Assembly (NCBI RefSeq): GCF_002243045.1
Contig: NZ_MBKP01000015.1
Location: 1 to 43,798, forward strand
Length of the DNA stretch: 43,798 bases
Direction: 5' to 3'
Source: Methanolobus psychrotolerans
Lineage (GTDB): Archaea > Halobacteriota > Methanosarcinia > Methanosarcinales > Methanosarcinaceae
Part shown: in pieces, positions 2,436 through 13,333 of the stretch
Layout of the letters: each line of letters opens with the position of its first letter
Numbering within the stretch: the first letter of the stretch is position 1
Program-made: the position numbers and the translations under genes
The notes under the pieces: generated by a model
Told to the model about the DNA's origin: nothing
The model's database searches: none
Seen by the model: the letters and a program-made list of their open reading frames with translations, nothing else

Positions 2436-3938
2436 TTACCCGTTGTTTCCGTTGCCGTTTACAATTTCCATTACTTCCCTGAAACTCTCAAGTGATGCTT
2501 CAATATTCTCGATTATCTCGTTTGCAAGGATGTCAGGATCTGGGAGATTGTCAAGGTCTGCAAGGCTTTTGTCCTTGAGCCAGAATATATCAAGGTTGGT
2601 TTTGTCTCTTGATACGATCTCTTCGTAGCTGAACCTTCGAAAACGGCCTTCGGGAGTCTCCTCACTCCACGTTTCCCTGCGGTTGTGGCGGTCTTCCGGG
2701 TTATAGCAGGTGATGAAGTCTTCAAGGTCGGAGTACTTCAGAGGGTTCTTTTTCAGTGTGTGATGCACGTTGGTACGGTAGTCGTATATCCATACTTCCC
2801 TTGTCCAGTGGTCTTTAGCTGCTTCTTTTGCCTGGAAGAAAAGTACATTGGCTTTAACTCCGTGGGCGTAGAATATGCCGGTGGGTAAACGAAGTATTGT
2901 GTGCAGGTCCATTGTTTCCAGAAGCTTTTTACGCACGGTTTCCCCGGCTCCTCCTTCAAAGAGGACGTTATCGGGCAAGACCACTGCTGCCTGACCGCCG
3001 GTTTTGAGGATGGTATGGATGTGCTGCACGAAGTTTAGCTGCTTGTTACTGGTAGTGACCCAGAAGTCCTGGCGGTTGTACGTGAGGTCTTCTTTTTCCA
3101 GCCCTCCTTCTTCGTTGGTGAAGGTCATGCTGCTCTTCTTCCCAAACGGAGGATTGGTAAGGATGTAATCGTAGCGATCACCGGAATCGGCTATGAGTGC
3201 ATCAGATATGGATATAAGAGGTTCGCTGTCTATCTCACCGATGTTGTGCAAAAAAAGGTTCATAAGAGCCAGCCTGCGGGTTCCGGGTACTATTTCATTG
3301 CCGCCAAAGGTCTTGTTCTTCAGGAACCTGCTCTGCTCCCGGTCAAGTTGTCCATGAGATTGTGATGTCAGGAAATCATAGGCTGCAAGGAAGAAACCGC
3401 CAGTACCACAGCAGGGGTCGCCTATGGTCTTCATGGGTTGCGGTTGCAGGCACTCAACCATGACCTTGATGAGCGGTCTTGGAGTGAAGTACTGACCGGC
3501 TCCGCTTTTTGTGTCCTCTGCGTTCTTCTGCAAGAGTCCTTCGTATATCTCGCCCTTGGTGTCAACGCCCATCATGACCCAGCTTTCCTTGTCGATCATG
3601 TCTATGACCTTGTACAGCATGGCAGGATCACTTATCTTGTTCTGCGCTTTGAGGAATATCTGCCCGAGCATCCCCGGCTTTTTCCCAAGCTCGTCCAGCA
3701 GGTTCCTGTAATGTACGTCCAGCTCAGCTCCGCGCTTCTGCCTGAGCACATCCCATGTGTATTCCTCCGGGATGCCAATATCCCTGCTATACGGTGGTTT
3801 CCTGTATTCCTCCGCCATCTTCAGGAATATGAGGAATGTCAATTGCTCCAGATAATCTCCATAGCTCACCCCTCCGTCACGCAGTACATTACAAAAGCTC
3901 CACACTTTGGATACGATGGATGATGAATTTTCAGACAT
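2436..3938 (-). CDS. hsdM: Type I restriction-modification DNA methyltransferase subunit HsdM
   Basis: This is the N6-adenine DNA methyltransferase subunit of a type I system; with HsdS it methylates the target and with HsdR it forms the restriction complex. It is 500 residues, normal for the family. The N-terminal helical HsdM_N region spans residues 1-140. GQYFTPRPL (about 148-156) precedes the SAM-binding motif DPCCGTGGFF (about 174-183), and the catalytic motif is NPPFG (about 262-266). It is the last gene of the operon and its start overlaps the end of the AlbA_2 gene by 8 bases, so translation is probably coupled. No frame disruption is seen, so the gene looks intact. Confidence 0.95.
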   Translation of the reverse strand: MSENSSSIVSKVWSFCNVLRDGGVSYGDYLEQLTFLIFLKMAEEYRKPPYSRDIGIPEEYTWDVLRQKRGAELDVHYRNLLDELGKKPGMLGQIFLKAQNKISDPAMLYKVIDMIDKESWVMMGVDTKGEIYEGLLQKNAEDTKSGAGQYFTPRPLIKVMVECLQPQPMKTIGDPCCGTGGFFLAAYDFLTSQSHGQLDREQSRFLKNKTFGGNEIVPGTRRLALMNLFLHNIGEIDSEPLISISDALIADSGDRYDYILTNPPFGKKSSMTFTNEEGGLEKEDLTYNRQDFWVTTSNKQLNFVQHIHTILKTGGQAAVVLPDNVLFEGGAGETVRKKLLETMDLHTILRLPTGIFYAHGVKANVLFFQAKEAAKDHWTREVWIYDYRTNVHHTLKKNPLKYSDLEDFITCYNPEDRHNRRETWSEETPEGRFRRFSYEEIVSRDKTNLDIFWLKDKSLADLDNLPDPDILANEIIENIEASLESFREVMEIVNGNGNNG

Positions 3939-5355
3939 TTTTTGGTTCCTTGGGTTTGGAATAGTATTTTTGTTTAGAGCTGTTTGGTTTGTCGGGAATG
4001 GTCATGAGAAGAAGACCGTTATCTAAAAGTGGTTTTAGTATGTCTTTTCGGAAATGCTCACGGTGAGTCAATTGCAAATATTCCATAATTTCGCTGGTTG
4101 TTTTAGGGTCCTTACAAAAATCAATAATAATGTCCTGCTTTTCGACTTGCGCGGTGACTTGCGCGGTGACTTGCGCGGTGACTTGCGCGGTTAGTGGAAT
4201 GATTGTCTTGAATACATTTCCCTCAATAAACTGGGGGATGCCACCATCTGCATATTCCTTGATAAATCGATTTACATTTAAAACACCAGAACCCAATTCA
4301 TCTACTCTTCCAAGTTGCATGAAGAATTTTACGATCGCAGGGTTTTTAGGGAATGGAGCAAATCTGTCAGGGTCGATTGGTCCTTCTCCGTGTGGATTGT
4401 TGGCATTTTCGGTTTCAACCCGGTTTTCATAGATTATAAATGTGCAGGGATAAGCATTCATATATTCTCTGTGGACGATCAAATTGGCAACTATTTCCCG
4501 GAATATTTTATTTCTAAGGCTTACCCGCTGATCGCCCTCCATATAAAATTTATCGGGTAAGTGTTTGGCGATGAATGTCATTAGTTGTTCATAGGCTTCT
4601 ATTAGGTTTGTCTGGATATATTCGCGATCATCGTAACGATAAATATCTTCAACACGGACCAATGCATCAATTTTAAAGTAAGGGAGTACTTGCTGGATAA
4701 TTTCATCTTTTCCAAACAGTAAAACGGCTGCAAGAGTGTAACCTTCCTGTGCTGTTTTAATATCTCGTTTCCATAGCCCTGCTTTTTCCAGCATTTGCTT
4801 ATCTGTCAGTGCTAGCCAGGGATGGTTGTCGTTGTAGCTTCGGATGAGGTTTTTGATTTTTGGGAAAAGGTCAGCTTTGAAATCTTCAAAGCGCAGTGCA
4901 GGATAAATTATGCCTTCGGTGTAATGGGCAGCTTTGCGGTTGTGTATCTCTGCGATCTGTTGTGGCTGTGTGACTTTAAAATCTCCGTCATTGCTGCGAT
5001 TGAATACAGTATTGCCGGTTTTATGTACCTGTGAGCTGGCAGGAACTTGAATATGAATTACCCATTTTCCCTCTAGTTCATAGGTTTGTGGAAATAGTAT
5101 GAATGGCGGGTCAAGTTTTTGAGGATTATTTGACAGATTGACCAGATTAGTAACAATCGAATCTGTTTTGTTATGTTGAACTCCTGTTACATTTCCACTA
5201 TCGCCCACTCCTAGAATGATGTCTCCTCCATCCCGGTTGAGCATGGCACAAATTGTCTCGAAGAGATTTACAGGCAAAGCTGTAAATGCTTCCTTAAATT
5301 CCAGACGGATGCCTTCCTGCTCTTTAAGTAATCTTTTCAACCTTTCCAATCCCAT
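3931..5355 (-). CDS. AlbA_2 (Schlafen-type) domain ATPase-like regulator with winged helix
   Basis: The 474-residue protein has an AlbA_2/Schlafen-like N-terminal domain (IRLEFKEAF, then CAMLNRDGGDIILGVGD; about residues 15-130). A GHKL-type HATPase_c_4 module follows (FREIVANLIVHREY, then FFMQLGRVDELGSG; about 280-390). A QVTA repeat linker leads to a C-terminal winged helix (about 410-460). Such proteins are often annotated as putative transcriptional regulators or as RecG-related, and they recur inside type I R-M operons. They probably act as regulators or accessory defence factors, but the precise role is unproven. The gene sits between hsdS (6-base gap) and hsdM (8-base overlap). It is homologous in layout to the AlbA_2 gene at 9035, so the operon carries two. 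Confidence 0.8.
   Translation of the reverse strand: MGLERLKRLLKEQEGIRLEFKEAFTALPVNLFETICAMLNRDGGDIILGVGDSGNVTGVQHNKTDSIVTNLVNLSNNPQKLDPPFILFPQTYELEGKWVIHIQVPASSQVHKTGNTVFNRSNDGDFKVTQPQQIAEIHNRKAAHYTEGIIYPALRFEDFKADLFPKIKNLIRSYNDNHPWLALTDKQMLEKAGLWKRDIKTAQEGYTLAAVLLFGKDEIIQQVLPYFKIDALVRVEDIYRYDDREYIQTNLIEAYEQLMTFIAKHLPDKFYMEGDQRVSLRNKIFREIVANLIVHREYMNAYPCTFIIYENRVETENANNPHGEGPIDPDRFAPFPKNPAIVKFFMQLGRVDELGSGVLNVNRFIKEYADGGIPQFIEGNVFKTIIPLTAQVTAQVTAQVTAQVEKQDIIIDFCKDPKTTSEIMEYLQLTHREHFRKDILKPLLDNGLLLMTIPDKPNSSKQKYYSKPKEPKNV
4145..4192. repeat. Four 12-bp tandem repeats in the AlbA_2 gene linker
   Basis: The unit ACTTGCGCGGTG is repeated four times (4145, 4157, 4169, 4181), the last with one mismatch. 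On the coding (minus) strand it encodes TAQV repeats joining the ATPase-like domain to the winged helix. The unit is a multiple of three, so slippage would change linker length without breaking the frame. Confidence 0.9.
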
Positions 5356-5361
5356 ATTTCC

Positions 5362-7326
5362 TCACCTCTTTCCGGCTATTGCTTTCTCACCCTTCACTCT
5401 CTCCAGCAAAACCTCAGCCGGCTCCCAGTCCTCCGCCTTCCTCACTTCCTCCAGCTCCCTCTCACTCAGCAACTTCCCCTCAAACGCCTTTTTCAGGATA
5501 CTCTGCCTAAGCGCCTCAGCTTTCTCCAGATTCTCCGCGATGTCCTGCTCCACTTTATCGCAGACTGAAAGGCGCATTTCGATTTCACTGACGATGGCTT
5601 GTTGTTCTGGAAGGGAGCAGAGGGGGAATGGTAAATTAGAAAGAACTGTCATATTTATTGAAGCAAGATTTACTGTTTGCTTTCCTTTTTTAAAGAAATA
5701 ATCTTTAGCCGTTTGTGTTTGTGAAAAATAGCCAATATATGCTGATACAAGACTCTTTGAATATGGTCTTGCACGAAAAACATGGTTTTGATGGATACAA
5801 TTTTCAATTTGTTCTTTCCAGATGGTTCCTCTTCCAAGTTTGTCTTTATCTCCACCTTCTGTGTATAGTATATCTCCTCTGATTAGGCGATATTTTTCCA
5901 AATCACCTTCTAAAACCTCAATGTGTTTTATTTCAGAGAGGTCCAAATAGCCATCCTGCACATTTGCAACCCTTAAATAAGGTAAAATAATCGTTTTTTT
6001 TCCTTCTAGCTTTCTACCTTTTGTTACTCCGCCTACTAGATTGCATAATTCTTGTAGCTTCAGCCATTTCCATCCAATTGGGATCTCTGATAAATCTAAT
6101 ATTTCTTCTTCAGTGAGGGTTTTTACATTTTTAATTTTTCGGAGGGTTGATTTTTGAGCCTCTTCCCTCTCCCTCCTAATCTCCACCAGCAGCTCCTCCG
6201 CACTCGGCAAATCCACCTGCTGCTCCCGCCATTTCCTCGTAAGCTCTCCCTCAAACGCTTTCTTCAGCACCGCCTGCCTGTAAACCTTGAGCTGCTCCTG
6301 TGCCAGTTTGAGATTGGCGATGCCGTTGTCGAGTTCGCTAAAGAGCAGCTCGATCTTGGAGACTATGGCGCGTTGTTCGGGGAGGGGTGGAAGTGGAATA
6401 ATTTCACTTTTTAAAACTGCACCTGAAATAGCTTTAAACGTAGTCCCAGTTCCTTTTTTATCCAATTCTTTTTCAATTAACCTCAGAAAGTAGAATACAT
6501 ATTTGTTACAAGATGGGTAGCGAATAGCTGCTAATCCTCTGCCAATGCAACACTTTTGATTAGCAATATTTGTTGCTCCAACTGGAGCTCTAACTGAAAT
6601 AAGAATATCATTTGGCTCAGCAATCTTATTTGGTTTTGAACACCACTTTGAAACAATCGGGTGTAATTCAGTAAACTCTGCTTTTCCCTGAAAAAAAGGT
6701 AAACCCATACCTTCAGAATTATAAGTTGATGATGGGGGTGATTGTCCCATTATAATTTCAGTAATATTATTTAGTTCTGCATCTATCCATCCAATTTTTC
6801 TTTCTTTGGGTTCAGTAAATTGGTTTAGTCCAGTACTCTCTTCATCAAATGCGGATACATTTGCACCATATTCTTCGCTATCTTCTGCTAAAAATACAGC
6901 TTCATATTCTGTTCTTGAAGTATTTTGATCTAATTTTTGGTCAAAATAGTCCAAAGATAAATAGCAGTAAGACTGAGGTGGTCTGAAGTTCTTTTTTAAT
7001 TTGTAAGGATCAATTTTCTCAGAAAATTCATCTAGATTGCTTATTTCTATAGCATAAGCCGTATCTGAGTTTTTGAAATACTCGAAAAAGTCATTTTCAG
7101 GGATTCCTCCATATTCATGGCATTTATCCCATAGTTTTTGAGGTGAATCTTCAATTATTCTGGCAATCTCAAAAGATGCAACTATCTTTTTGATGGGAGA
7201 ACTGGAATAGATGAATACTTTACTTATGTCCTTTTTCTTGAAAATTGCTTTTCTAAACTCGAATAGCTTTTTGCCTTCTAGGATTTCATTAACATATTTT
7301 GGTTTAATTGACAGTAAAACGTTCAT
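5362..7326 (-). CDS. hsdS: ASCH domain-HsdS fusion: type I R-M specificity subunit
   Basis: This DNA-recognition subunit sets the target sequence for HsdM and HsdR. The frame can start at 7338 (MANSMNV) or at the internal ATG 7326 (MNVLLSIKPKYV); the latter is the usual start of ASCH proteins and is used here. Numbered from the longer form, residues 5-135 form an ASCH (PUA-superfamily) domain with SIKPKYVNEILEGKKLFEFR. A linker follows (about 136-177). The HsdS part then has TRD1 (about 178-315), conserved region PLPPLPEQRAIVSKIE with a long helix, TRD2 (about 420-590), and a second LPEQQAIVSEIE helix. At about 658 residues it exceeds an ordinary HsdS by the extra ASCH unit. It overlaps the end of the PIN-GNAT-EVE gene. 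ASCH proteins are normally separate genes, so this looks like a fusion. Confidence 0.88.
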   Translation of the reverse strand: MNVLLSIKPKYVNEILEGKKLFEFRKAIFKKKDISKVFIYSSSPIKKIVASFEIARIIEDSPQKLWDKCHEYGGIPENDFFEYFKNSDTAYAIEISNLDEFSEKIDPYKLKKNFRPPQSYCYLSLDYFDQKLDQNTSRTEYEAVFLAEDSEEYGANVSAFDEESTGLNQFTEPKERKIGWIDAELNNITEIIMGQSPPSSTYNSEGMGLPFFQGKAEFTELHPIVSKWCSKPNKIAEPNDILISVRAPVGATNIANQKCCIGRGLAAIRYPSCNKYVFYFLRLIEKELDKKGTGTTFKAISGAVLKSEIIPLPPLPEQRAIVSKIELLFSELDNGIANLKLAQEQLKVYRQAVLKKAFEGELTRKWREQQVDLPSAEELLVEIRREREEAQKSTLRKIKNVKTLTEEEILDLSEIPIGWKWLKLQELCNLVGGVTKGRKLEGKKTIILPYLRVANVQDGYLDLSEIKHIEVLEGDLEKYRLIRGDILYTEGGDKDKLGRGTIWKEQIENCIHQNHVFRARPYSKSLVSAYIGYFSQTQTAKDYFFKKGKQTVNLASINMTVLSNLPFPLCSLPEQQAIVSEIEMRLSVCDKVEQDIAENLEKAEALRQSILKKAFEGKLLSERELEEVRKAEDWEPAEVLLERVKGEKAIAGKR

Positions 7327-8791
7327 CGAGTTTGCCACCAGCTTTTAGGGCTAGATATTGCTCATGGTTTATTTCAGTTATCGACTGTGGTGCAGCTTTC
7401 AATATATTATTTTTCATAAGATAATCCAGACTTAAAGGATTTGGCAGGTATAGGTTATGCATGAAGCGGATTACAAATACAGTTTTATCTGCCCACTCCT
7501 GAAGTTCCTCTTCTGAATAAACAGTTCTTTTACCTACTATTCTTTTAAGCTCGTCCAAATTGTTGATTCGGACAGGGTCCTGATCAATAATCCCAAGGGA
7601 ACTTATTACCTTTTGGTCATGTGAACGGTAAAACAGAATAATATCTCCCTTTTTTAGGCTTGTAATTCTGGAAGAAGAAAGATATGCTTTCTTTATTGCA
7701 TTGCCTGGAATATTGATCTCAAAATAATCAGTCAATTTCATCTGCCTTTTTTTGTAATCAGGAAATAGAATATCATGGAATTTGGGAAGGATTGGAATAA
7801 CAAACTTTCTTACACTTTCACCATCTTTGAACGATGGATAATATTTTCTGGTAACTTCAAGTGCTGATAATTCCGTCACTTCAGGTATGAATTTTTTAAG
7901 ATACACAGGCTCGTTATTCTTTGCCAGCTCTCCTACTTTTTCAAAACCAAAGCTCTCAATCAGATAAATTAACACATCATTTTCAGTTTCAAAATGAGTT
8001 AGGTAAATCTCAAAGATTTGATTGGTTATGCAATACTGGAAAGCAATTTTCAGAAATAACTCTCCCATTTTCGAACCAGCCAAATCTGCCTTCAGCGTTG
8101 CAATTTTAACTCTCTTTCCAGCAGGAATTAGACTATGAGTTTCGATAGGCTCGTCTTCTTCTTTTAGCATCAAAAAAGCTTTAACTTCGCTATCCACTTC
8201 GTAAGTATAACATTCGCGGCTTTCCTTGATACACTTGTCATACCACTTTTTAAAAGCCATATCTCCATAATCTGATTTCAACGAGTCAAAAAAAGGCTTT
8301 TCTATATCAATTTCATGAGTATAGCATTTTCTCAATAAACTGTGACTAGGGAAAAAACGCTGATACAGGGCATTAAAATAATCGAGAGCAGAATCAATTG
8401 AAAATACTCTGTCATCAAGATTAAGTAAATTGGCTTTTCTCCTGATTCCTCTATCTTCTGTAATCAGAAAATCAACAAGATTTCTCTTCAATGAAAAAAG
8501 GATTTCGTTGTCATTCTCATCATGTGAATTGACCGGAGTACCAACAACTGATATAAAATCATCATTTGGTTTGGGTGGTGAAGGTAGTCGAGGATAACCA
8601 CGAAGCTTTGATAACGTAATTTCTCTCCTTTTAACGTCACTATCATTTTCGATATCTTTCAGGGAAGCTGGATGAATAAATTCCAGATGACCATGTTCTC
8701 GGATTATTGTTAACAATGCTTGAAGGTCAGGAGTGAGCTCTTTTGGATCTTCAATGTGAATTAAAATATTAGTGTCATATAGAATTTTCAT
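7304..8791 (-). CDS. PIN-GNAT-EVE three-domain protein in the R-M operon
   Basis: At residues 1-140 there is a PIN-type nuclease fold with MKILYDTNILIHIED at the start and the acidic LITEDRGI later (about 112-119). The middle part (about 205-320) resembles a GNAT acetyltransferase (LKADLAGSKMGELFLKIAF, then ESFGFEKVGE). The C-terminal 140 residues resemble an EVE/PUA-like domain (LKKGDIILFYRS followed by SSLGIIDQDPVRI). EVE domains are proposed readers of modified bases and PIN domains are typically RNases, so a nucleic-acid modification sensor coupled to a nuclease is a reasonable inference. The 3' end overlaps the ASCH-HsdS gene, which implies coupling. No promoter was clearly seen, though a repeat-rich gap lies upstream. 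The domain calls are by eye; the GNAT is the least certain. Confidence 0.7.
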   Translation of the reverse strand: MKILYDTNILIHIEDPKELTPDLQALLTIIREHGHLEFIHPASLKDIENDSDVKRREITLSKLRGYPRLPSPPKPNDDFISVVGTPVNSHDENDNEILFSLKRNLVDFLITEDRGIRRKANLLNLDDRVFSIDSALDYFNALYQRFFPSHSLLRKCYTHEIDIEKPFFDSLKSDYGDMAFKKWYDKCIKESRECYTYEVDSEVKAFLMLKEEDEPIETHSLIPAGKRVKIATLKADLAGSKMGELFLKIAFQYCITNQIFEIYLTHFETENDVLIYLIESFGFEKVGELAKNNEPVYLKKFIPEVTELSALEVTRKYYPSFKDGESVRKFVIPILPKFHDILFPDYKKRQMKLTDYFEINIPGNAIKKAYLSSSRITSLKKGDIILFYRSHDQKVISSLGIIDQDPVRINNLDELKRIVGKRTVYSEEELQEWADKTVFVIRFMHNLYLPNPLSLDYLMKNNILKAAPQSITEINHEQYLALKAGGKLDERFTVN

Positions 8792-8886
8792 GATTCCAAT
8801 TCAACTCCATTTTTGAAATATGCCGTATAAATTTTAAATGTGTAACCATGTATAAATATATTTCATTTTGAACCGATTAAACAAAA

Positions 8887-8956
8887 AACCGCAGATGCAC
8901 ACAGATAAATGCCGATATGAACTTACATCTGTGTTAATCTGCGTTTATCTGTGGTT
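8887..8956. repeat. Imperfect inverted repeat built from CAGAT-containing units
   Basis: The left arm starts ACCGCAGATGCACACAGAT (from 8888). The right arm read on the other strand starts ACCACAGATAAACGCAGAT (from 8955). The arms share ACC-CAGAT-AC-CAGAT spacing with a few mismatches. It lies in the 243-bp gap that divides the R-M operon between the PIN-GNAT-EVE gene and the first AlbA_2 gene. It resembles dispersed intergenic repeats known in many archaea and bacteria. Whether it acts as RNA, a recombination site or a mini mobile element is not known. Confidence 0.6.
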
Positions 8957-8996
8957 CATTAATAATGGAGTATTATTCCAAAAATGTGTATTTTCT

Positions 8997-9032
8997 CCAC
9001 AGTTTATACCACAGTTTATACCACAGTTTATA
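8997..9032. repeat. Three 12-bp tandem repeats in the intergenic gap
   Basis: The unit CCACAGTTTATA occurs three times without change (8997-9008, 9009-9020, 9021-9032). It sits directly 3' of the AlbA_2 gene, whose stop is at 9035. The copy number is likely variable between strains. Confidence 0.9.
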
Positions 9033-9034
9033 CT

Positions 9035-10399
9035 TCAATAATTGAACGACTCAATTACTTCCCAATGTCCACTTTTCCTCGATCCTATGCGCTTTATTTT
9101 CCCTTCATCTTTCAATTTGGAAAGGTTCCACTCCACTCCACGTATGGATAGGTTTATTATCTCACTTATCTCTTCACGGGTAATAGTGGGATTATGTTTG
9201 ATTATTTCCAGGATTTTCTCCGAACTTTTCTCCGAACCTTCACCCAACTTTTCTCCCAACCCAACATTTGAAATTGCATCACCTTTTCGGAAAATCACGG
9301 AAAAACTACCATCGAATGAAAACTCAACCGAAGCCTTCTCGTTTTCATCTACAGCCTGTTTGATTCGGTTTATGCCTGTGCCGACCTTCTCTATATAATC
9401 AATTCTGTGCAGCAGGGATGCAATAAGCGGATTGCGGGCAACGCTCCGACTGCCGAATTCAGAGGGTTTCAGACCGCTTGGCAAACCGCCGGGGTTTGAA
9501 ATCTCAACCCTGTCATCAAAAACCTCTACAAGCACATTGGAGCCTCTGTCAAAATAATCACGGTGACAGACGGCATTGATGATGGCTTCCCTGAGGGCTA
9601 TATCGGGGATGTCGGGAATCTCTTCCCGCTGGATCTTCTCTATTTTGTATTCCACGTTGGTGTGTCTTTTGACAAAAAGGATGGCATTGTCGATGTTCTC
9701 AACAATATTTTCCTTGAAATCCTTTTTGTCAAGGATATTCACCTTTTTTGTTCCTTTATACAGGACACAGACAACGATTGCATGATTTAGCAGGAAATCA
9801 ATATCCTTTGCGAAGAACAGGACCCCGGCATTGTTTAGTTTTCCGTCATCTGTGACACAATCCAGATTTCGCAGCAAAGCCATCTTGTCAATAGAACTGG
9901 TAATGCCGGCAAGTTTCAGGAAATTGCGAAATGCCCTCTCATCAAAATCATTCTCAAAATCTGCCTTTCCGTTTCGCAGTTCCTCAAAACGGATACGTCC
10001 TTCCTTCTGGAAAAAAGCAATGATCTCATTGCGGTTAAGTTTCTGGGAATTTGCCCCGTTTCGAAGAAAGAACCCTCTGGAACATGCATAAGGCTCCTCG
10101 CTCCCCTCCGGCACATCAGCGACAATAAAATTGTCATGCACTTCGATCTTAACATCAAGCTGTGGCTGCAACTGCCTCAGGGAATCCGGCACCCTTGACC
10201 TGAAACTATTATCGGTCTGAACTCCCTTGATAACTCCCTTATCAGAAATGCCAAGAAATACCTTTCCGCCATTGGAATTTGCAAAAGCGCAAACCTCCTC
10301 CACAAACGACTTATCAAGACTCTCCTTGAACTCGATATGGTAGCCCTCACCAGCCGCAACAATACTTTCTATCCACTTGTCCCTGTCATCCATATTCAA
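9035..10399 (-). CDS. AlbA_2 domain regulator with GHKL-like and winged-helix domains (first of two)
   Basis: The 454-residue protein starts with an AlbA_2/Schlafen-type domain (GYHIEFKESLDKSFVEEVC, then NSNGGKVFLGISDKG; about residues 15-120). An HATPase_c_4 module follows (LREAIINAVCHRDYFDRG, then RIDYIEKVGTGINRIK; about 260-370). A low-complexity linker with GLGEKLGEGSEKSSEK leads to a C-terminal winged helix (about 395-450). The ATG overlaps the last 4 bases of hsdR, so the two are translationally coupled. The family is usually labelled a putative transcriptional regulator. In R-M operons it may regulate the locus or act in defence, but this is inference. It has the same architecture as the gene at 3931, though the two are diverged. 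Confidence 0.82.
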   Translation of the reverse strand: MNMDDRDKWIESIVAAGEGYHIEFKESLDKSFVEEVCAFANSNGGKVFLGISDKGVIKGVQTDNSFRSRVPDSLRQLQPQLDVKIEVHDNFIVADVPEGSEEPYACSRGFFLRNGANSQKLNRNEIIAFFQKEGRIRFEELRNGKADFENDFDERAFRNFLKLAGITSSIDKMALLRNLDCVTDDGKLNNAGVLFFAKDIDFLLNHAIVVCVLYKGTKKVNILDKKDFKENIVENIDNAILFVKRHTNVEYKIEKIQREEIPDIPDIALREAIINAVCHRDYFDRGSNVLVEVFDDRVEISNPGGLPSGLKPSEFGSRSVARNPLIASLLHRIDYIEKVGTGINRIKQAVDENEKASVEFSFDGSFSVIFRKGDAISNVGLGEKLGEGSEKSSEKILEIIKHNPTITREEISEIINLSIRGVEWNLSKLKDEGKIKRIGSRKSGHWEVIESFNY

Positions 10400-13152
10400 G
10401 CCGCCAGTGCCTCATTCAATTCGCTGATGATCACGTTCATCTCATCGCCAAAGAGCTGGTACATTTTGCCACGACCGCCCATTGCATCGAAGGGAGTGTA
10501 ATCGAGGTCATCTATTTCCAGGTGGAAACTGTTGCTAACGTAATCCTTTATCATGCGCAGCCAGTTCATCTGATCTTCATTGAACTTCAGGGTTCCGGCC
10601 TGTTTGCTGAAAACCCAGTCCTGAAAATTGCGGTTCACTGTCAAATCGTAAGCTGTAAGAACCGGGTCTATCTCAGTCACCCTGCGGATAAGGGAAACCA
10701 GAGCTGTAAGCTCGTTTTTGGGTGAGTTACCATTGCCCTTTTCCAGTTGTTCGTATGCATGGCAGAGCCTGAAAGGTGCAAACTGGGGCTTCTCCATCTT
10801 CAGTTTCTCCAGCACTTCCTTGATCATATTGAAGGTCACTTCCCTGCGCCGGAAGGGCTGGTTGTAGAATATCTTCAGTGCCGTGATCTCATCCCTGTGA
10901 ACTTCCAGATATGTCTTAAAATCGTTCACAAGCTCCTCTGCATTCGCCACAGCATCCTTATCCCATTCGGCTCTGGTCACATTGTCAATGTTCACCGTAT
11001 CGATTATCTGCTCATGCACCCTGCGAACATTCTCAATGTATTCGTTCAGCTTTCCGGTAAAAGTAGACCTTGCAACATCTATCAGCTCCTGTTGGGCCTG
11101 CACTTTCACCTGCGACTCCGTCATCTCCGGCTGGCGTTGCTTGATGTCAAAAGCCTTCGTCTCAATAATATCAGGATTATAAGCATTCAGCAGGTCCCTC
11201 ACAGTCTGGTTAACAGTCTTGCCATCTGCCTTCTGGGCAAAATTATCTCTTTCCTCATCCGTAAGCTGCCTGTTCAGTCTGGCCAGCCGGTTGGCAAGTG
11301 ACACATACAGGTCCTCATCCTGCGCACCAAAGGTCACAGCCGCCAGCAGGTCTTTCAGAGCAACACCTTTCTTACGCTCAAGTGGTCTGCTGTCCGTCTT
11401 CATGGATTTTGTCACGCCCACAGCATCCACAATAACAAAATGCGTCTTAGCAGAAACCACCGAAGGTGTAACTTTCTTCAGGTCATCATACTCTATGGTA
11501 CGTGTACCGCGTCCCTTCATCTGCTCAAAATAATTACGGCTTCTCACATCCCTCATAAACAGCAGGCATTCCAGCGGCTTCACATCCGTGCCCGTTGCTA
11601 TCATATCCACCGTCACAGCGATCCTCGGATTATAATCATTACGGAAAGCCGCCAGCACAGATTTCGGGTCGTCCTCCGCCTTGTAGGTCACCTTCTTGCA
11701 GAAAGCATTCCCCTCTCCGAACTCTTCCCTCACTATCTGGATAATATCATCTGCATGGCTGTCTGTCTTGGCAAATACAAGAGTCTTTGGAATCTCACTC
11801 CTGCCGGGGAATATCTCCGGAAGCTTATCCCGAAACGCCCGGATAACATTGCGTATCTGGCTGGGATTGACCACATCCCGGTCAAGTTGCTTGCCGTTGT
11901 ATATCAGATCCTCATCCAGTTGTTCCCATCGTTTCCTGCGGCTGAGCTTCTCTCTTTTATCTACAAATTCCCTGGCCCTTATCTGCGCACCATTCTTTGT
12001 GATCTCAGTTTCAATAGTATAAACATCGTAAATGACATTAACACCATCTGCAACAGCCTCTTCATAGCTGTACTCACTAACCACATTCTCATTGAAAAAC
12101 CCGAAAGTACGCTTGTCCGGGGTAGCAGTAAGCCCTATCAAAAAAGAATCAAAATAATCCAGCACCTGCTGCCACAGGTTGTATATTGAGCGATGGCATT
12201 CATCGATAACTACAAAGTCAAACTCTTCTATCGGTATCTTCTCATTATACACAACCGGAATCGGTTCTTTCGGTTGCCACTTCCTCTCAGCAGGATTCTC
12301 CTCCTCTGTTTCTTCATCCAGCTCCTCATCCTTCAGGATCGAATAAAAACGCTGTATGGTGGAAATGCAAACCTGACTATCCGAAGCAATATAATTGGAA
12401 CGCAGCCGCTGCACATTATACAGCTCAGTGAACTTACGGTTATCATCATTTGGCACATATGCCATGAATTCCTGCTCAGCCTGCTCTCCAAGGTTTCTTG
12501 TATCTACAAGGAAAAGCACCTTTTTAGCATCTGCATATTTCAGCAGCCTGTAAATAAAAGTAATAGCAGTATATGTTTTTCCAGATCCTGTAGCCATCTG
12601 GATAAGTGCCCTTGGACGGTTATCCTTAAACGAGTTCTCAAGGTTCATGATGGCCTTTACCTGGCAATCACGTAGTCCTTTTGTTCCCAGTCCCGGAATA
12701 TCAAGCAATCTCTCCCGCAAAGATCTCTCCTTTTTAAGCCATGTCCTGAAAGTCTCAGGCCGGTGGAAGGAAAAAACAGGCCTTGACCTTGGCTTAGGGT
12801 CACGGTAGTCTGTAAATCTTGTAAGCTCCCCGTTACTTTCATAAACAAAAGGAAGCCGGCCATTATCCAGAAATTTTAGCTTGCTGGTGGCATATTCTGC
12901 GGATTGCTCCTCCACAACCGTCAACTTGTGCCCTTCCTCGGCCTTTTTAGCTTCTATGATCCCAACAGCCACCTTCTCAACAAAAAGTACATAATCAGAC
13001 GGTCCCACATCGGTCCAGTACTCCCGGACCGCAACTCCTCTGGAAGCATTCCAATCTATCTGGTTCCTTTTTTGTACTACCCAGCCAGAATCATTCAGTT
13101 TTCTATCTATCTTGTCTCTGGCTTCCTGTTCAGGGTTCTGATTGTCGCTCAT
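10396..13152 (-). CDS. hsdR: Type I restriction endonuclease subunit HsdR
   Basis: This is the motor and nuclease subunit that translocates and cuts unmodified DNA. The ATG at 13152 is preferred because AAGGA lies just upstream; an in-frame TTG at 13170 (MNVKEN) would add 6 residues. The N-terminal nuclease domain has the PD-(D/E)XK signature GPSDYVLF followed by IIEAKKAEEG (about residues 50-75). The SF2 motor has Walker A MATGSGKT (about 186-193), motif II DECHRS and motif III LTATP, with a long helical C-terminal region after about residue 650. About 918 residues fits the family. It is the first gene of the minus-strand operon, and the 4-base overlap with the AlbA_2 gene supports co-transcription. 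No disruption was seen. Confidence 0.95.
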   Translation of the reverse strand: MSDNQNPEQEARDKIDRKLNDSGWVVQKRNQIDWNASRGVAVREYWTDVGPSDYVLFVEKVAVGIIEAKKAEEGHKLTVVEEQSAEYATSKLKFLDNGRLPFVYESNGELTRFTDYRDPKPRSRPVFSFHRPETFRTWLKKERSLRERLLDIPGLGTKGLRDCQVKAIMNLENSFKDNRPRALIQMATGSGKTYTAITFIYRLLKYADAKKVLFLVDTRNLGEQAEQEFMAYVPNDDNRKFTELYNVQRLRSNYIASDSQVCISTIQRFYSILKDEELDEETEEENPAERKWQPKEPIPVVYNEKIPIEEFDFVVIDECHRSIYNLWQQVLDYFDSFLIGLTATPDKRTFGFFNENVVSEYSYEEAVADGVNVIYDVYTIETEITKNGAQIRAREFVDKREKLSRRKRWEQLDEDLIYNGKQLDRDVVNPSQIRNVIRAFRDKLPEIFPGRSEIPKTLVFAKTDSHADDIIQIVREEFGEGNAFCKKVTYKAEDDPKSVLAAFRNDYNPRIAVTVDMIATGTDVKPLECLLFMRDVRSRNYFEQMKGRGTRTIEYDDLKKVTPSVVSAKTHFVIVDAVGVTKSMKTDSRPLERKKGVALKDLLAAVTFGAQDEDLYVSLANRLARLNRQLTDEERDNFAQKADGKTVNQTVRDLLNAYNPDIIETKAFDIKQRQPEMTESQVKVQAQQELIDVARSTFTGKLNEYIENVRRVHEQIIDTVNIDNVTRAEWDKDAVANAEELVNDFKTYLEVHRDEITALKIFYNQPFRRREVTFNMIKEVLEKLKMEKPQFAPFRLCHAYEQLEKGNGNSPKNELTALVSLIRRVTEIDPVLTAYDLTVNRNFQDWVFSKQAGTLKFNEDQMNWLRMIKDYVSNSFHLEIDDLDYTPFDAMGGRGKMYQLFGDEMNVIISELNEALAA

Positions 13153-13333
13153 ATTTTCCTTTACGTTCAATATTCTGCTGTTTATCAGGAGTTGTCGATA
13201 ATTCTACAAGGGGGTGAAATGATTTTGACAAAGTTTATGTGTACATTTAATATAAATATTATCTGTTTGGATTCTGATATAAATGTAAAAACAACAAAAT
13301 AATCATAAAAGAAGTAATTGCTTTAAAATAATA

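What the first reader, a model, noticed from the sequence alone, without database searches (positions are those of the whole stretch)
5362..8791. R-M operon with PIN-GNAT-EVE protein and ASCH domain fused to HsdS
A type I specificity subunit carries an extra N-terminal ASCH (PUA-superfamily) domain, and the overlapping upstream gene encodes PIN, GNAT-like and EVE-like domains. EVE/ASCH-type domains are proposed or known to read modified bases. The fusion ties such a reader physically to DNA target recognition, and a PIN nuclease could act as an abortive RNase arm when the modification state is wrong. I know of no characterised system with this set.
Basis: partly seen in the sequence, partly recalled or inferred. 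Interest (0 to 1): 0.8.

Follow-up and report, generated by a model that had tools for sequence, protein, structure and literature searches.

The report
Antitoxin fused to restriction-enzyme specificity subunit
In this methane-making archaeon the small partner protein of a probable toxin is welded onto the part of a DNA-cutting defence enzyme that picks its target, a published but untested arrangement that could let the cell poison itself when a virus disables the enzyme.

Summary
Window 7304-8791(-) encodes a PIN-GNAT-EVE protein. The overlapping gene 5362-7326(-) encodes an ASCH domain joined in one open frame to a complete type I HsdS, inside a full hsd operon (2436-13170). It is not an accident: 11 of 112 genomes of the window's family carry the fusion, and the distinct loci treed form one clade. 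ASCH stays about 81% identical while both target-recognition domains were swapped repeatedly. It is not new in kind: Bell et al. 2020 (PMC7641849) reported PIN-GNAT-EVE + ASCH operons beside type I R-M and the ASCH-HsdS fusion in Methanohalophilus. PADLOC lists the pair as PDC-M11A/B. A GenBank coliphage record names family members "GevT toxin" and "GevA antitoxin". My comparative evidence favours toxin-antitoxin over modification-reader: 87/87 intact toxins have ASCH next door, usually with the same 23-nt overlap; broken toxin genes sit beside intact ASCH, never the reverse; toxin-less ASCH loci sometimes keep the toxin gene's 3' scar. Best reading: HsdS carries the antitoxin, so the restriction complex holds an RNase/acetyltransferase toxin in check, working like PrrC in EcoprrI. 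No experiment shows this.

The parts
7304..8791 (-). PIN-GNAT-EVE protein (495 aa), predicted toxin; PADLOC PDC-M11A, homologue of coliphage GevT
   Evidence: PIN residues D6, D94, D113 and T111 and GNAT G239/K241/G243 nearly invariant
8393..8791 (-). PIN (VapC-like RNase) domain, residues 1-133
   Evidence: VIA-align Z 12.4, rmsd 2.9, 121 residues to VapC of Rickettsia felis 3zvk
7886..8341 (-). GNAT acetyltransferase domain, residues 151-302
   Evidence: Z about 13 to NatD, Naa50, PaiA; Pfam Acetyltransf_10 below cut-off
7322..7822 (-). EVE/ASCH-type PUA-superfamily domain, residues 324-490
   Evidence: Z 14.7 to ZmASCH
5362..7326 (-). ASCH-HsdS fusion gene (654 aa from ATG 7326; longest ORF starts at GTG 7338)
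6943..7326 (-). ASCH domain, residues 1-128; PDC-M11B / GevA / ZmASCH family, predicted antitoxin
6793..6942 (-). variable linker between ASCH and HsdS, residues 129-178 (median 29% identity)
6394..6792 (-). HsdS target-recognition domain 1 (swapped between relatives)
6124..6393 (-). HsdS conserved region 1 (coiled coil)
5620..6123 (-). HsdS target-recognition domain 2 (swapped between relatives)
5365..5619 (-). HsdS conserved region 2 (coiled coil)
7304..7326 (-). 23-nt overlap of toxin stop and ASCH ATG, conserved in 89 of 98 pairs including coliphage GevT/GevA
10396..13170 (-). hsdR: nuclease motif D59..EAK, GSGKT, DECH
9035..10399 (-). SLFN_AlbA_2 / HATPase_c_4 / winged-HTH protein
   Evidence: homologues at the same place in several fused loci
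3931..5355 (-). second SLFN_AlbA_2 protein with Fic-like C-terminus
   Evidence: homologues at the same place in several fused loci
2436..3938 (-). hsdM: DPCCGTG and NPPF motifs

Best explanation
[quoted passage not shown] The PIN-GNAT-EVE protein is the toxin, probably acting on RNA (RNase plus acetyltransferase, with its EVE domain for substrate choice). It is held inactive by the ASCH domain, which is now carried by the M2S / R2M2S complex. Loss of HsdS, or engagement of the complex by a phage anti-restriction protein, would free the toxin and stop infected cells. It would thus work like PrrC in EcoprrI, without being a PrrC homologue. Shown here: anatomy, homology, conserved pairing and overlap, single-origin fusion kept through target-domain swapping, intact catalytic and nucleic-acid-binding residues. 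Annotated by others, experiment not seen by me: GevT toxin, GevA antitoxin. Inferred: toxicity of this protein, inhibition by the fused ASCH, the trigger, and RNA as target.
For: Family members in Escherichia phage PhiR47_2 (PV340567.1) are annotated 'GevT toxin' and 'GevA antitoxin' and match PDC-M11A (2e-133) and PDC-M11B (7e-52). 87 of 87 intact toxin genes with at least 500 nt of 3' flank have ASCH next to them; 89 of 98 pairs share the in-frame ATG at a 23-nt overlap. Toxin broken while ASCH is intact in L086/L187, L133/L188, L112, L073, L074, L080; toxin-less ASCH with a scar of the toxin's 3' end in L169, L170, L171. All 11 ASCH-HsdS fusions lie behind the toxin gene, 10 with the toxin intact. 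ASCH median identity 81% against 20% for TRD1 and TRD2, with 5 TRD1 and 9 TRD2 classes. dN/dS about 0.08-0.35 for fused ASCH and 0.10-0.20 for the toxin. One clade in the ML tree, support 100. The free-ASCH sister group has the same hsdR-toxin-ASCH-hsdS-hsdM order. Precedent: PrrC is sequestered in EcoprrI and released on T4 infection.
Against: No experiment on any PIN-containing member was found. GevT/GevA names rest on a GenBank annotation without a paper in the library. Clean ASCH genes persist without toxin, and 6 of 7 such loci are in type I hsd loci, more than toxin-bearing unfused loci (28 of 74; p=0.04, rows not independent), which suggests ASCH may also serve the R-M enzyme itself. 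No complex of ASCH with toxin or with HsdM could be modelled here.
Confidence: 0.45

Rival explanations
1. ASCH is a modified-base reader that adds modification specificity to the type I enzyme, as proposed by Bell et al. 2020; the PIN-GNAT-EVE protein is a separate effector or regulator.
For: Bell et al. interpret the Methanohalophilus fusion this way. ASCH fold matches modified-base readers at lower score (YTH, THYN1, VcaM4I, McrB N-terminal domain) and keeps the ZmASCH nucleic-acid-binding residues Y40, K46, S119. Toxin-less ASCH occurs mostly in hsd loci.
Against: Every fused ASCH found is still behind the toxin gene; ASCH is unchanged while DNA targets are swapped; broken toxins and toxin scars beside intact ASCH fit an antitoxin; [quoted passage not shown]
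Confidence: 0.27
2. The fusion is an addiction device only: linking the antitoxin to HsdS makes loss of the R-M operon lethal, with no sensing of phage anti-restriction.
For: Toxin-antitoxin genetics as above; R-M operon complete and its conserved parts maintained.
Against: The toxin was lost or broken several times, for example in L086/L187 within the fused clade, so the addiction is escapable; the free-ASCH pair in the same operon would addict equally well and does not explain selection for a fusion.
Confidence: 0.2
3. The GNAT domain acetylates a nucleic-acid base (as suggested by Iyer et al., cited by Bell) and ASCH is the enzyme that removes the acetyl group, like the ASCH amidohydrolase YqfB.
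For: ASCH fold similarity to YqfB (Z 9.2 to 9kyh); GNAT cofactor motif intact.
Against: YqfB needs Lys21, Thr24, Glu74; the motif here is K20-x-x-E23-x-R25, with E invariant in all 98 partners, so the nucleophile is missing.
Confidence: 0.05
4. Neutral in-frame merger of neighbouring genes without functional consequence.
For: Unfused relatives have ASCH and hsdS adjacent or overlapping, so one lost stop is enough; linker is poorly conserved.
Against: Kept across five genera with strong purifying selection on ASCH and never split again in 11 loci.
Confidence: 0.03

Closest known systems
(PIN)-GNAT-EVE + ASCH operons, Bell et al. 2020 BMC Biol 18:159 (PMC7641849)
   Same: Same proteins, same association with type I R-M, same ASCH-HsdS fusion (reported for Methanohalophilus), COG2865 (RecG-like) genes shown near such loci
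   Different: Here the fusion is extended to 11 genomes in five genera and shown to be one clade with swapped target domains; Bell read ASCH as a modification reader, I favour antitoxin
PADLOC candidate system PDC-M11 (PDC-M11A + PDC-M11B)
   Same: Full-length hits of both components
   Different: Here the B component is fused to HsdS
GevT-GevA of Escherichia phage PhiR47_2 (PV340567.1)
   Same: GNAT-EVE toxin and ASCH antitoxin of the same families, same 23-nt overlap
   Different: GevT lacks PIN; GevA is free; prophage locus, no R-M
PrrC-EcoprrI latent anticodon nuclease
   Same: RNase-type protein encoded inside a type I hsd operon; proposed restraint by the R-M complex
   Different: PrrC has an NTPase domain and a different RNase, is not homologous, and has no ASCH fused to HsdS
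ZmASCH (PDB 5GUQ, ZMO0922)
   Same: Closest solved relative of the fused ASCH; Tyr47, Lys53, Ser128 correspond to Y40, K46, S119
   Different: Stand-alone protein, weak ssRNA nuclease; its PDB molecule name is 'helix-turn-helix domain-containing protein'

Membership tests
PDC-M11 / GevTA toxin-antitoxin family | (PIN)-GNAT-EVE protein matching PDC-M11A | tested here: met
   E=1.9e-148 over residues 1-494
PDC-M11 / GevTA toxin-antitoxin family | adjacent ASCH protein matching PDC-M11B | tested here: met
   E=1.5e-49, as the N-terminal part of HsdS
PDC-M11 / GevTA toxin-antitoxin family | toxin upstream, short coding overlap with antitoxin | tested here: met
   23-nt overlap 7304-7326, as in GevT/GevA
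PDC-M11 / GevTA toxin-antitoxin family | toxicity neutralised by the ASCH partner | not testable with these tools
   needs expression experiments
Type I restriction-modification | hsdR, hsdM, hsdS in one operon with intact motifs | tested here: met
Type I restriction-modification | restriction and m6A modification activity | not testable with these tools
   needs methylome and plating assays
PrrC (EcoprrI) | homology to PrrC (NTPase plus anticodon nuclease) | tested here: not met
   Sequence searches of Pfam and PADLOC give no NTPase or PrrC match for the toxin; its fold matches are PIN, GNAT and EVE/ASCH
PrrC (EcoprrI) | RNase held inactive by the type I enzyme | not testable with these tools
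   proposed by analogy only
YqfB amidohydrolases | Lys21-Thr24-Glu74 triad | tested here: not met
   Thr24 position is Glu23 in all 98 partners; mapped by motif spacing, not by superposition
ZmASCH-type nucleic-acid-binding ASCH | Tyr47, Lys53, Ser128 cleft residues | tested here: met
   Y40, K46, S119 in all 10 fused proteins examined
Modified-base reader | binding of a modified base | not testable with these tools
   needs binding assays

The most novel reading that the evidence does not exclude
A type I specificity subunit that is itself the antitoxin: the restriction complex acts as the lock on an RNase/acetyltransferase toxin, so phage anti-restriction factors that block the complex trigger abortive infection in an archaeon.
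Probability: 0.33. Interest if true: 0.8.

Novelty: new member of a known kind. Interest (0 to 1): 0.48.

Why it matters
PrrC is the known case cited here of a toxin RNase locked inside a type I R-M enzyme. If the antitoxin of a widespread toxin family was welded onto HsdS, that gives a covalent, testable link between restriction and cell suicide, in archaea, where such guards are little studied. It also makes a concrete prediction about what the widespread (PIN)-GNAT-EVE + ASCH operons do. Because the fusion and its free-ASCH sister group both exist, the effect of tethering can be compared directly.

Tried and rejected
Literature for GevT/GevA: no open paper found. PDC-M11 by name: none. YqfB-type deacylase: the nucleophile position does not fit. 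Start at GTG 7338: rejected in favour of ATG 7326 on the conserved overlap. Assembly or frame artefact: rejected, same fusion in 11 genomes. Independent repeated fusions: rejected, one clade. Conservation could not separate antitoxin from reader roles, since both predict an intact ASCH. A toxin-ASCH complex could not be predicted with the tools (single chains only). Search of viral contigs gave four distant pairs, none fused.

Full report
WHAT IS THERE. The minus strand carries one operon: hsdR (13170-10396), an SLFN_AlbA_2/HATPase_c_4/winged-helix gene (10399-9035), a PIN-GNAT-EVE gene (8791-7304), ASCH-hsdS (7326-5362), a second AlbA_2 gene (5355-3931) and hsdM (3938-2436). HsdR keeps its nuclease and helicase motifs and HsdM its DPCCGTG and NPPF motifs. 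Pfam sees GNAT and ASCH only weakly, but PADLOC matches the first protein to PDC-M11A (1.9e-148, residues 1-494) and the N-terminus of the second to PDC-M11B (1.5e-49, residues 3-132). AlphaFold models are confident: toxin pLDDT 91, ASCH pLDDT 92. Structural matches: VapC for 1-133 (Z 12.4), N-acetyltransferases for about 151-302 (Z about 13), ZmASCH for 324-490 (Z 14.7), and ZmASCH for the fused ASCH (Z 17.9, rmsd 1.9-2.0 over 132 residues). PIN residues D6, D94, T111, D113 and GNAT residues G239, K241, G243 are near invariant.

WHERE ELSE. Of 393 genomes of the phylum, 42 have the PIN-GNAT-EVE protein and 49 the ASCH. In the window's family, 11 of 112 genomes have ASCH inside an open frame of 610-715 codons; these fall in five genus codes. 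Named loci include Methanosarcina spelaei, Methanococcoides seepicolus and Methanohalophilus euhalobius, so the family is Methanosarcinaceae (inferred from matching contigs). All 11 have the toxin gene directly upstream; in Methanococcoides it is frameshifted. The maximum-likelihood tree of 102 toxin proteins puts the ten distinct fused loci treed in one clade with support 100. Related clades with free ASCH include loci with the order hsdR - toxin - ASCH - hsdS - hsdM (L017, L053 and others), so the fusion most likely arose by joining two neighbours.

THE FUSION IS MAINTAINED. Across ten fused proteins, median pairwise identity is 81% for ASCH, 79% for both conserved HsdS regions, 20% for TRD1, 20% for TRD2 and 29% for the linker. 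There are five TRD1 and nine TRD2 classes at a 50% cut. ASCH therefore belongs to the constant scaffold and stayed while DNA specificity was exchanged many times. dN/dS is 0.08-0.35 for ASCH and 0.10-0.20 for the toxin. The residues that bind nucleic acid in ZmASCH (Tyr47, Lys53, Ser128; PMC5615036) correspond to Y40, K46, S119 and are kept in all ten. The window's genome has three other hsdS genes and no other ASCH of this family, so this fusion protein appears to be the only ASCH partner available to the toxin.

WHY TOXIN AND ANTITOXIN. A coliphage record (PV340567.1) annotates the homologous pair as GevT toxin and GevA antitoxin, and both match PDC-M11A/B. All 87 intact toxin genes with enough flank have ASCH adjacent. 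In 89 of 98 pairs the ASCH ATG lies exactly 23 nt inside the toxin gene, in E. coli phage as in archaea. Toxin genes are broken next to intact ASCH in six loci. Among seven loci with ASCH but no toxin, three keep the end of the toxin gene just upstream, for example 'GIDERFTVN*' in L170. I found no intact toxin without ASCH. This one-sided loss is the usual mark of a toxin-antitoxin pair (established knowledge).

HOW IT PROBABLY WORKS. With the antitoxin on HsdS, the type I complex becomes the holder of the antidote. The precedent is PrrC, an anticodon nuclease encoded within the EcoprrI operon, sequestered in that enzyme and released on T4 infection by the anti-restriction peptide Stp (PMC3874165; PMC3014915). 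I propose the same logic here with unrelated parts. The trigger and the toxin's target are inferred, not shown.

Bell et al. 2020 (PMC7641849) described these operons, their link with type I R-M, and the Methanohalophilus fusion, and inferred that ASCH gives modification specificity. Six of seven toxin-less ASCH loci lie in hsd loci, against 28 of 74 toxin-bearing unfused loci (Fisher p=0.04, rows not independent). ASCH may thus do something for R-M itself. The two roles are not exclusive.

WHAT IS NEW HERE. The kind is published; the window is a new member. Additions: distribution and single origin of the fusion, retention through target-domain swapping, the conserved 23-nt overlap, toxin-loss scars, the link to the GevT/GevA annotation, and a testable guard model.

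Noticed in passing
window 4144-4191: Perfect 12-bp x 4 tandem repeat, in frame (TAQV repeats), inside the second AlbA_2 gene; could vary protein length by slippage.
   Followed up: no
window 8997-9033: 12-bp x 3.1 perfect tandem repeat in the gap just upstream of the toxin gene, a possible regulatory or variable site.
   Followed up: no
L068 7606-8658 (also L175 2106-3158): A decayed relative: PIN domain joined in frame to the C-terminal part of HsdS, with GNAT-EVE and ASCH deleted together and hsdR split.
   Followed up: partly
L020 7464-9161; L098; L088 5676-6932; L075 10127-11398: Extra GNAT proteins of about 420 aa with an EVE/ASCH-like C-terminus beside the pair, in L020, L098 and L191 fused to ASCH as a 565-566-aa protein.
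   Followed up: partly
L169, L170, L171: Toxin-less ASCH genes that keep a scar of the toxin gene's 3' end directly upstream.
   Followed up: yes
L168 5898-7890: Two genes, an AriA/AbiLi-like AAA_15 ATPase and an unknown 232-aa protein, directly upstream of a toxin-less ASCH in a type I operon.
   Followed up: partly
L166 (psiM100) 2554-5846: PIN-GNAT-EVE (ORFD) lies mostly in the annotated 'inserted fragment IFa' of archaeal prophage psiM100, while the ASCH (ORF5) is annotated as shared with psiM2.
   Followed up: no
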